Shown here: positions 12,972 to 42,944 of the stretch, in pieces
How the letters are laid out: the number at the start of each line of letters is the position of its first letter
Numbering within the stretch: the first letter of the stretch is position 1
Assembly (NCBI RefSeq): GCF_024518575.1
Contig: NZ_JANIHG010000010.1
Coordinates: forward strand, 1 to 44,858
DNA length: 44,858 bases
Reading direction: 5' to 3'
Source of the DNA: Methanothrix sp.
GTDB lineage: Archaea; Halobacteriota; Methanosarcinia; Methanotrichales; Methanotrichaceae
Program-made: the position numbers and the translations under genes
Notes under the pieces: generated by a model
The model's database searches: none
What the model saw: only the letters and a program-made list of their open reading frames with translations
Told to the model about the DNA's origin: nothing

Positions 12972-13059
12972 CGGGCTCGGGGGGATTTGAACCCTCGGCC
13001 ACCTGGTATCTCCATAAAATTTAAAAGCCAGGCGCTCTGCCTAACTGAGCTACGAGCCC
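12972..13059 (-). tRNA. tRNA-Lys (anticodon TTT), intron-containing
   Basis: On the minus strand the 5' acceptor GGGCTCG pairs with 3' CGAGCCC, with discriminator G and no encoded CCA. The D arm GCTC/GAGC is intact. Anticodon stem halves CCTGG and CCAGG are separated by 21 nt instead of 7. With loop CTTTTAA the anticodon is TTT, leaving an intron of about 14 nt, at the short end for archaeal introns and at the usual place after position 37. The T arm has loop TTCAAAT and one A-C mismatch in the stem. I could not fold a convincing bulge-helix-bulge by eye. Confidence 0.9.
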
Positions 13060-40945: not shown

Positions 40946-41749
40946 TCAATTCTGCTTTGTCCCATCTTGATGCTCGTATATCGGCCTCTCAGGCACCAGG
41001 TATATCGTCCAGAATGAGAGCAGCGTGACGATTGCCTTCACAACGATATTCGTCTGGAACATCTGGATCATCGCATCGAATCCGATTATTCCGGTGAATG
41101 CTATCAGTGGGAATAAAGTGCTGTCTACAGGTATCGATATCGCGTTGGACACCGCGACCCTGGCCCACTGAGGTCTGTTCCTGCCCCAGCCGGTGACCCA
41201 GAGGTGATAGATCTGGGTGTCGATGAGCTCTGCTATGACCATGGTTATCACCGAGCCGAGAACTATCCTGAGCTGGAGGGAGAAGATCGACTGCCACCAG
41301 GGGCCGCCAGACGTCTCGAATATCCCGAAAAGGAACTGCCATGCAGCCTGCCCGCCATTTGCAGCCCATTCAGGCTCCGCAGGCATCAGAACCACGATCT
41401 GAAAGTAAAGGGCTGCCAGGATGTTTACAAACGCGCTCAGCCAGATCGTGGTGATGGCAGCTCTCTTTCCGAGCTGCTTGTGTATCAGGTCCCTCCATGT
41501 GAATGTCATTGAGTATATGAAGCCAGCATCCATGACAAGGCTCCCGAAGTAGGTGACCTTTGTCGCGGCTATGTTGCCGGCCAGCGAGAAGAATATGTAA
41601 AGCCCGCAGATGATTATCGTCGCCTGTGTTTTATCGATATGGATCCTGAAGCGAGAGGATCCAGATGCTGGACGACGCGATGAAAAACGTTCTCCACCAT
41701 CAGCGTGACCACCAGCAGGATCGCTGCCGGACCTCCCATTATGTCTCAC
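40946..41749 (-). CDS. YhhQ/VUT-family transporter (queuosine precursor type)
   Basis: A 267-residue membrane protein of COG1738 with about six transmembrane helices. Family segments: YIFFSLAGNIAATKVTYFG, the arginine/aspartate motif FTWRDLIHKQLGKRAA, and AELIDTQIYHLWVTGWG, then SNAISIPVDSTLFPLIAF. Bacterial members import preQ0/preQ1. It overlaps the end of the tgt gene by 11 bp, so transport of a 7-deazaguanine base is the natural inference. The first 40 residues are hydrophilic and unusual; no later ATG/GTG/TTG fits. Confidence 0.87.
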   Translation of the reverse strand: MRHNGRSGSDPAGGHADGGERFSSRRPASGSSRFRIHIDKTQATIIICGLYIFFSLAGNIAATKVTYFGSLVMDAGFIYSMTFTWRDLIHKQLGKRAAITTIWLSAFVNILAALYFQIVVLMPAEPEWAANGGQAAWQFLFGIFETSGGPWWQSIFSLQLRIVLGSVITMVIAELIDTQIYHLWVTGWGRNRPQWARVAVSNAISIPVDSTLFPLIAFTGIIGFDAMIQMFQTNIVVKAIVTLLSFWTIYLVPERPIYEHQDGTKQN

Positions 41750-42944
41750 TCTTCATCCACCTTCTCTTGAGTGCGCTGAACCTCCCTCCTCTTATCGATC
41801 TCCTTATCGACTCCATAAGCCTGAGCATGAAGTACACGTTATGGACGGTGGCAGCTCGGAAGTAGGAGAGCTCCTTCGAGATGTAGAGGTGTCTGAGATA
41901 TGCCCTGCTGTACATCCTGCATGTCGGACATCCGCATCTCGGATCAACCGGCCTTCTGTCGTCCTTGAAGATCGAGGACTTTATGCTTATCCTGAACTTG
42001 TTTTCGATGCATCCTCCAGATGCAGGGGATATGTAGAGGTTGCCTCTGCGTGCGATTCTTGTCGGATGGACGCAGTCGAATGTATCGATCCCCCTCTCAA
42101 CACATTCGAAGATGTCCGGGATCTCCCCGATTCCGAGGAGGTGTCTTGGACGCTCGTCAAGCCTTGGGATGACCCAATCAAGAACCTGGTGCATGTCCTC
42201 CTTGCAGTTTCCGAGAGAGCCTCCGATCGCGATGCCGTCGAAAGGCAGCGATCTTATGAAATCCGCGCTCTCCCTCCGGAGGTCCTCGAACCAGCCTCCC
42301 TGTATGATGCCATATATCGCCTGTCTCCTGTCGTGGTACCTCAAAGACTGCACAGCCCAGCGGTGGGTCCTCTCCATCGCTTCTCTGGTGTAGTCATAAT
42401 CGGAGAGCGGAGATGTGCATTCGTCGAACGCCATGACGATGTCAGATCCGAGCCTGCTCTGGATACGCATGGCGCTCCTGGGATCGAGAAAATGCCATCC
42501 ACCATCGATTAAGGATTTGAAGGCGACGCCCTCATCCGTGATCCTTGTCAGGTTCTCTCTCCTCTCTCCAGATCGTCTCCCCTGCGGGAAGATGCTTCCT
42601 ATCTTGCTTATGTTGTGCTCCCTTCCGAGTCCGAGGGAGAAAGCCTGAAACCCGCCTGAGTCTGTGAAGATGGGGCCATCAAAGGACATGAACCTGTGGA
42701 GACCGCCCATCCTCCTGATGAGATCCTCTCCTGTTCGCAGGTGCAAATGATACGTGTTTGCGAATATAGCCTGCACACCAAGAGCCTTCAGATCATCTGA
42801 TCCGAGAGCCCTGACAGATGCCACGGTGGCGACGGGAATGAACTCGGGGGTCTCTATGACCCCCCGGCGTGTCCTGATCACCCCGAGCCTCGCGCGCGTA
42901 ACCCTTGACCGCTTCAGAACATCAAAGGAGAAATGCTCAGCCAT
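41739..42944 (-). CDS. tgt: tRNA-guanine transglycosylase, bacterial type
   Basis: A 401-residue enzyme that exchanges guanine in tRNA for a 7-deazaguanine base. It is like bacterial Tgt, which acts at G34, not the longer archaeal ArcTGT with PUA domains. The motifs are FTDSGGFQAFSL (D95), MAFDECTSPLSDYDY (D174), GIIQGG, nucleophile D290 in GIDTFDCVHPTRIARRG, and zinc ligands C337, C339, C342, H368 at the bacterial spacing. There is an insertion at about 105-132, and the loop normally GGLAVGE reads GGSLGNC. From memory, similar sequences occur in Patescibacteria. It overlaps a YhhQ-family gene. Confidence 0.93.
   Translation of the reverse strand: MAEHFSFDVLKRSRVTRARLGVIRTRRGVIETPEFIPVATVASVRALGSDDLKALGVQAIFANTYHLHLRTGEDLIRRMGGLHRFMSFDGPIFTDSGGFQAFSLGLGREHNISKIGSIFPQGRRSGERRENLTRITDEGVAFKSLIDGGWHFLDPRSAMRIQSRLGSDIVMAFDECTSPLSDYDYTREAMERTHRWAVQSLRYHDRRQAIYGIIQGGWFEDLRRESADFIRSLPFDGIAIGGSLGNCKEDMHQVLDWVIPRLDERPRHLLGIGEIPDIFECVERGIDTFDCVHPTRIARRGNLYISPASGGCIENKFRISIKSSIFKDDRRPVDPRCGCPTCRMYSRAYLRHLYISKELSYFRAATVHNVYFMLRLMESIRRSIRGGRFSALKRRWMKSET

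What the first reader, a model, noticed from the sequence alone, without database searches (positions are those of the whole stretch)
40946..42944. Bacterial-type Tgt overlapping a YhhQ-family transporter in an archaeon
Archaea normally use ArcTGT at position 15 for archaeosine. This Tgt has the bacterial length, catalytic D95/D174/D290 and CxCx2C...H zinc site, and no PUA domain. The next gene, overlapping by 11 bp, is a queuosine-precursor-type importer. Seen: motifs and overlap. Known: bacterial Tgt plus YhhQ salvage 7-deazaguanines for tRNA position 34. Inference: this methanogen may import a base and modify G34 of GUN tRNAs, which would be new or rarely described in archaea.
Basis: partly seen in the sequence, partly recalled or inferred. 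Interest (0 to 1): 0.8.

Follow-up and report, generated by a model that had tools for sequence, protein, structure and literature searches.

The report
Archaeal operon likely salvaging queuine for tRNA
This methane-producing archaeon, besides the usual archaeal tRNA-modifying enzyme, carries a bacterial-type enzyme joined to an importer, which together probably take up the bacterial vitamin-like base queuine and put it directly into the anticodons of four tRNAs; the same gene set is widespread in two archaeal families but Q has not been shown in any of them.

Summary
In detail: a 401-aa bacterial-type Tgt (41739-42944, minus) overlaps by 11 bp a PF02592/QPTR (YhhQ-family) transporter (40946-41749, minus). 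Both are under strong purifying selection, and the genome also has its own ArcTGT, ArcS and QueC.

This genome lacks QueA, QueH, QueG and QueF, so preQ1 cannot be made or matured here. In its family (Methanotrichaceae) 35 of 50 genomes have this Tgt, 32 with a QPTR next door and none with QueA. Archaeoglobaceae and two small families carry the same Tgt subfamily: 38 genomes, 0 with QueA, 37 with QPTR. Three other families of the class show the mirror image: standard-pocket Tgt next to QueA, with QueH, no QPTR. The subfamily has a shortened pocket loop (GGSLG instead of GGLAVGE). Its nearest bacterial relatives sit beside Qng1, the queuine-releasing hydrolase, or QPTR, never QueA.

Best reading: direct queuine salvage, as in Chlamydia and eukaryotes, acquired from bacteria. 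Bacterial Tgt/QueA/QueH in archaea is already published (PMC8204110); I found no report of this queuine-salvage branch. Substrate and tRNA position are inferred.

The parts
41739..42944 (-). tgt: bacterial-type tRNA-guanine(34) transglycosylase, 401 aa, GGSLG subfamily
   Evidence: TIGR00430 462 bits; AlphaFold model pLDDT 86.7, nearest solved folds Z. mobilis and T. maritima Tgt, TM-score 0.83-0.86 normalised by the query
40946..41749 (-). QPTR (YhhQ/COG1738/PF02592) transporter, 267 aa, GTG start
   Evidence: PF02592 and TIGR00697 above cut-off; PF02592 within 2 kb of tgt in 32 of 35 family genomes
41739..41749 (-). 11-bp overlap of tgt stop and transporter start (GTGAGACATAA), suggesting translational coupling
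   Evidence: sequence; frame preserved in five congeners
41757..41763 (-). Shine-Dalgarno-like AAGGTGG, 7 nt before the transporter GTG
   Evidence: sequence; present in congeners but also inside tgt coding sequence
42210..42224 (-). substrate-pocket loop GGSLG (residues 241-245) in place of GGLAVG(E)
   Evidence: alignments
42660..42662 (-). D95, equivalent of the general acid/base Asp of Tgt
   Evidence: invariant
42075..42077 (-). D290, equivalent of the nucleophilic Asp of Tgt
   Evidence: invariant
41841..41936 (-). zinc site C337-x-C339-xx-C342 ... H368
   Evidence: invariant
42552..42629 (-). about 25-residue insertion after FSLG (residues ~106-131), a mark of the GGSLG subfamily; predicted disordered (residues 109-128)
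   Evidence: alignment; pLDDT < 50

Best explanation
The two genes are a translationally coupled queuine-salvage operon. The QPTR protein imports queuine released by neighbouring bacteria. The Tgt exchanges it in one step for guanine 34 of the GUN-anticodon tRNAs (Tyr, His, Asn, Asp), giving Q34 without QueA/QueG/QueH. In the same cell the ancestral ArcTGT/ArcS pathway uses home-made preQ0 for archaeosine at position 15. Shown here: gene identities, overlap, purifying selection, absence of the preQ1-to-Q enzymes tested, conserved pairing with QPTR, placement in a Tgt subfamily linked to Qng1 or QPTR. Inferred: queuine as substrate, G34 as target, direction of transport.
For: Own genome: no QueA, QueH or QueF and no QueG above cut-off, while QueC, ArcTGT and ArcS are present. 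Methanotrichaceae: Tgt in 35/50, QueA 0/50, QueH 0/50; QPTR within 2 kb of Tgt in 32/35. Of the 3 exceptions, one Tgt is cut by a contig end, one is split over two contigs with the QPTR on the second, one keeps decayed QPTR remnants next to tgt and a QPTR of another type elsewhere. G189 shows a QPTR remnant next to tgt followed by a different QPTR, so an importer is retained although its subfamily changed. Archaeoglobaceae, f11, f31: 0/38 QueA, 37/38 QPTR, all readable pockets GGSLG. Three other families of the class: pocket GGLSIGE in every Tgt read, QueA neighbour, QueH, no QPTR. Bacterial GGSLG Tgts: 4 next to Qng1/PF10343, 4 next to QPTR, 0 next to QueA; salvage gene in the flank 9/11 vs 1/68 for standard pockets, p = 2.6e-9, phylogenetically related loci. 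Q-salvaging bTGTs depart from GGLAVG in this loop (PMC11570991), and enlarging it at Val233 is needed to house queuine (PMC3660597).
Against: No biochemistry. GGSLG does not exactly match the published queuine motif GG[LS][AS]G; both alignments put Leu, not Gly, opposite Val233, in a loop one residue shorter, so the pocket argument is suggestive only. Cys176 (Z. mobilis Cys158) is kept as in preQ1 enzymes, and V233G alone did not let Z. mobilis Tgt use queuine (PMC3660597). Bartonella has tgt+QPTR without QueA yet prefers preQ1 (PMC11570991). Qng1, QueK and QueL were not searched in this genome.
Confidence: 0.68

Rival explanations
1. preQ1 salvage with preQ1 as the final base: QPTR imports preQ1, Tgt inserts it at G34 and nothing follows, as proposed for Bartonella.
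For: Bartonella precedent with the same gene set (PMC11570991); Cys158 equivalent retained; QueF and QueA absent.
Against: The preQ1-type loop GGLAVGE is lost, including the position of Glu235, while Bartonella keeps it; GGSLG relatives in bacteria sit beside Qng1, whose product is queuine; the archaeal Tgts that probably use preQ1 (next to QueA) all have GGLSIGE.
Confidence: 0.12
2. The Tgt puts preQ0, made by the cell's own QueC pathway or imported, at position 34, or backs up ArcTGT.
For: QueC is present; QPTR proteins can carry preQ0 (PMC5372724).
Against: An importer would be superfluous for a cell that makes preQ0; Tgt falls in the G34 family and far below the ArcTGT cut-off; a separate, different PF02592 protein exists elsewhere in the genome and could serve preQ0.
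Confidence: 0.07
3. The imported base is another, perhaps undescribed, 7-deazaguanine, or a queuosine nucleoside or nucleotide processed by an unrecognised hydrolase before insertion.
For: The GGSLG loop and 25-residue insertion match neither the characterised preQ1 nor the human queuine enzymes; Qng1-type processing accompanies the bacterial relatives.
Against: No positive evidence for another base; QPTR proteins characterised so far carry preQ0, preQ1 or queuine (PMC11570991).
Confidence: 0.1

Closest known systems
Direct queuine salvage of Chlamydia trachomatis (bTGT + QPTR; PMC11570991 and works cited there)
   Same: tgt and QPTR present, QueA/QueG/QueH absent, direct insertion inferred
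   Different: Free-living archaea that also make archaeosine; loop GGSLG rather than an exact GG[LS][AS]G; extra insertion; genes overlap in one operon
Eukaryotic QTRT1/QTRT2 with Qng1
   Same: Direct queuine insertion without on-tRNA maturation; Qng1 accompanies the bacterial relatives of this Tgt
   Different: Sequence is closer to bacterial Tgt (303 vs 233 bits); no QTRT2-like subunit was seen among the genome's three TGT-domain places; human loop keeps its length, with Gly replacing Val233 (PMC3660597)
Archaeal Tgt/QueA/QueH pathway of DPANN and Methanosarcinales (PMC8204110)
   Same: Bacterial-type G34 Tgt in archaea, same taxonomic class in part
   Different: That set has QueA and QueH, standard pocket and no QPTR; single acquisition with this one is rejected (p-AU 6.7e-5)
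ArcTGT/ArcS archaeosine pathway
   Same: Same TGT superfamily fold and chemistry
   Different: Position 15, preQ0, PUA-bearing proteins; this genome has it separately at C9:90596 onwards

Membership tests
Bacterial-type tRNA-guanine(34) transglycosylase (TIGR00430) | Score above curated cut-off and above ArcTGT | tested here: met
   462.3 vs 306.75; TIGR00432 112.4 vs 350
Bacterial-type tRNA-guanine(34) transglycosylase (TIGR00430) | Catalytic Asp residues and CxCx2C...H zinc site | tested here: met
   D95, D174, D290, C337, C339, C342, H368 invariant
Bacterial-type tRNA-guanine(34) transglycosylase (TIGR00430) | Groups with bacterial Tgt, not ArcTGT, in a tree | tested here: met
   single very distant ArcTGT as outgroup; archaeal GGSLG clade nested among bacterial Tgts (99)
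Bacterial-type tRNA-guanine(34) transglycosylase (TIGR00430) | Exchanges G34 in GUN tRNAs | not testable with these tools
   needs biochemistry
QPTR / YhhQ (PF02592, TIGR00697) | Scores above curated cut-offs | tested here: met
   107.7 vs 27.2 and 62.3 vs 50.95
QPTR / YhhQ (PF02592, TIGR00697) | Transports a queuosine precursor | not testable with these tools
   needs uptake assay
Direct queuine salvage pathway | tgt and QPTR present | tested here: met
Direct queuine salvage pathway | QueA, QueG and QueH absent from genome | tested here: met
   genome 99.3% complete; for QueG only the 8 best of 24 first-look candidates were scored
Direct queuine salvage pathway | Published queuine pocket motif GG[LS][AS]G | tested here: inconclusive
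   GGSLG: departs from the preQ1 motif but is not an exact match (PMC11570991)
Direct queuine salvage pathway | Q in tRNA depends on external queuine | not testable with these tools
   needs culture and LC-MS
De novo / preQ1 queuosine pathway | QueF and QueA present | tested here: not met
   absent from own genome
ArcTGT | TIGR00432 above cut-off; PUA domain | tested here: not met
   112 vs 350 bits; no PUA hit

The most novel reading that the evidence does not exclude
Two archaeal families, Methanotrichaceae and Archaeoglobaceae, depend on a bacterial micronutrient, queuine, for the anticodons of four tRNAs, with a distinct Tgt subfamily (short GGSLG loop plus a flexible insertion) that inserts it directly. 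The same cell would then carry both archaeosine at position 15 and queuosine at position 34.
Probability: 0.6. Interest if true: 0.8.

Novelty: new variant of a known kind. Interest (0 to 1): 0.66.

Why it matters
The papers found here state that queuosine occurs in bacteria and eukaryotes and archaeosine in archaea (e.g. PMC8204110, PMC10639084). A conserved import-and-insert module in aceticlastic methanogens and Archaeoglobales would mean that common archaea of digesters, sediments and hot systems take a bacterial vitamin for decoding NAU/NAC codons, a new cross-domain dependency. Members probably include long-sequenced genomes (contig sizes fit, from my memory, M. thermoacetophila, M. soehngenii and A. 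fulgidus), so it can be tested now. The GGSLG/Qng1/QPTR association also gives a sequence marker that separates probable queuine-using from preQ1-using Tgts.

Tried and rejected
A single archaeal acquisition of bacterial Tgt shared with the QueA-bearing families was tested and rejected. 'The pocket is simply human-like V233G' was considered and not adopted: alignments place Leu there and shorten the loop. The AlphaFold model gave no coordinates I could measure, so it could not settle the pocket; it only shows the Tgt fold and a disordered insertion. No known RNA family such as a preQ1 riboswitch lies near tgt (gathering threshold). Literature searches found no report of tgt-QPTR queuine salvage in archaea, but most subscription papers are not searchable here.

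Full report
OBSERVATION. Tgt has the bacterial length and domain content, no PUA domain, and scores 462 bits on the G34 family against a cut-off of 307, but only 112 on the ArcTGT family against 350. The catalytic aspartates and the zinc ligands are invariant among 22 relatives. The transporter passes PF02592 and TIGR00697. Against five congeners dN/dS is 0.035-0.052 (tgt) and 0.055-0.127 (transporter core). In all six genomes the transporter frame stays open back to the overlapping GTG, with in-frame indels only, which supports translation from there even though the first ~35 residues are variable.

HOST. The window is contig 66 of a 1.66-Mb, 99.3%-complete assembly. Its family f1 is Methanotrichaceae: genome G192 of f1 contains the same 19,391-base contig as the named record JAFGMR010000011.1 'Methanotrichaceae archaeon'. 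Archaeal RNA polymerase, GatE and a methanogenesis-marker-like protein lie on the same contig, so the pair is not bacterial contamination. All five sampled congeners carry it too. The genome also has ArcTGT (617 bits on TIGR00432), directly followed by ArcS, and QueC, so it makes preQ0 and archaeosine in the usual archaeal way.

METABOLIC CONTEXT. The own genome has no QueA, no QueH, no QueF and no QueG above cut-off (for QueG only the 8 best of 24 first-look candidates were scored). It can therefore neither make preQ1 nor mature preQ1-tRNA to Q by known enzymes. If the Tgt works at all, it needs an imported base, and if the product is Q that base must be queuine.

TWO ARCHAEAL SYSTEMS. In 238 genomes of the class, bacterial-type Tgt above cut-off occurs in 83. 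They fall into two sets. (A) Methanotrichaceae: 35 of 50 genomes have Tgt; 0 of 50 have QueA or QueH; QPTR lies within 2 kb of Tgt in 32 of 35. Every readable pocket loop is GGSLG. (B) Three other families (f3, f4, f6; unnamed, by my guess ANME-2 lineages): standard-length Tgt, loop GGLSIGE in every one read, QueA next to Tgt, QueH elsewhere, and no QPTR at all. In the wider phylum the GGSLG Tgt also occurs in Archaeoglobaceae (family f10, with the named Geoglobus locus L007 inside it) and in families f11 and f31: 38 genomes, 0 with QueA, 37 with QPTR. A tree puts set A with the Archaeoglobaceae, f11 and f31 sequences in one clade (SH-aLRT 99) nested among bacterial GGSLG Tgts, apart from set B. 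Forcing all archaeal bacterial-type Tgts into one clade is rejected (p-AU 6.7e-5), so there were at least two transfers from bacteria.

THE TRANSPORTER LINK. The tgt-adjacent QPTRs of set A and f11 form their own clade and are not close to the second PF02592 protein of the same genome (branches are long). In G189 only a remnant of this transporter is left after tgt and a PF02592 protein of another subfamily stands next to it. In G228 only remnants remain beside tgt and a relative of the G189 transporter sits elsewhere in the genome. An importer is thus kept even when its subfamily changes, which argues for a functional tie. In several Archaeoglobaceae a QPTR also lies beside tgt, mostly in the opposite orientation; in others it is elsewhere in the genome.

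WHY QUEUINE. Tgt relatives in bacteria with the same loop and insertion sit next to Qng1 (PF10343 Q_salvage) in Desulfobacterales-type and Anaerolineae genomes (L008-L011) or next to QPTR in alphaproteobacteria including Holosporales (L013-L015, L044). None has QueA in the flank. Standard-loop bacterial Tgts in the same scan have QueA in 25 of 68 flanks, QPTR in one and Qng1 in none; salvage genes 9/11 vs 1/68, Fisher p = 2.6e-9. Loci in a clade are not independent, so the p-value is descriptive. Qng1 releases queuine from queuosine-5'-monophosphate (title of a work listed in PMC11130926). Published work ties this loop to base choice: preQ1 enzymes have GGLAVGE, queuine users GG[LS][AS]G (PMC11570991), and Val233 blocks queuine in Z. 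mobilis Tgt (PMC3660597). GGSLG departs from the preQ1 motif and lacks the Glu235 position, but it is not an exact queuine motif: the loop is one residue shorter and alignments put Leu opposite Val233. I count the loop as a subfamily marker with suggestive, not decisive, value; the gene-content evidence carries the argument.

MECHANISM. Proposed: QPTR brings in queuine from bacterial turnover; Tgt, a (beta/alpha)8-type enzyme (AlphaFold pLDDT 86.7; TM-score 0.83-0.86, normalised by the query, to Z. mobilis and T. maritima Tgt), displaces G34 through an aspartate (D290) covalent intermediate with D95 as acid/base and installs queuine, as established for the family. The ~25-residue insertion is predicted disordered and its role is unknown. 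Steps shown: genes, linkage, selection, absences, phylogeny. Steps inferred: substrate, tRNA target, transport.

NOVELTY. I found no paper describing the QueA-less, QPTR-coupled branch in Methanotrichaceae and Archaeoglobaceae, within a library that lacks most subscription journals. I rate it a new variant of a known kind: it works like Chlamydia/eukaryote-type direct queuine salvage, but membership is unproved because the pocket motif is not an exact match and no activity has been measured.

Noticed in passing
L004 1444-2157 (G000:C38:16541-17008): A second PF02592 transporter in the same genome, distant from the tgt-linked one and beside an ion-channel-like protein (my reading of its sequence); it might be the preQ0 importer for archaeosine or something else.
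   Followed up: partly
L095 (G189) and L165 (G228): Decayed remnants of the original tgt-linked QPTR, with a QPTR of another subfamily beside tgt (G189) or elsewhere in the genome (G228).
   Followed up: yes
L159 (G226:C187:20304-21169): A short QueF-like ORF about 170 bp from a PF02592 transporter in one Methanotrichaceae genome; could be a preQ0/preQ1 or archaeosine salvage pair, or assembly contamination.
   Followed up: no
L218, L219, L220 (family f11): Tgt active-site motif reads DSAGFQ instead of DSGGFQ in all three f11 genomes; effect unknown.
   Followed up: no
L083: A Dehalococcoidia Tgt with a standard-type loop (GGLSIGEP) next to a QPTR without QueA in the flank, an exception to the loop/partner rule.
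   Followed up: no
window 12972-13059 (-): tRNA found by Rfam but missed by ARAGORN; it looks like an intron-containing tRNA-Lys (UUU).
   Followed up: partly
L167, L100, L165 and other genus g9 loci: The insertion after FSLG is longer in g9 Tgts (hits up to about 1370 bp instead of 1155), so its length varies within the family.
   Followed up: no
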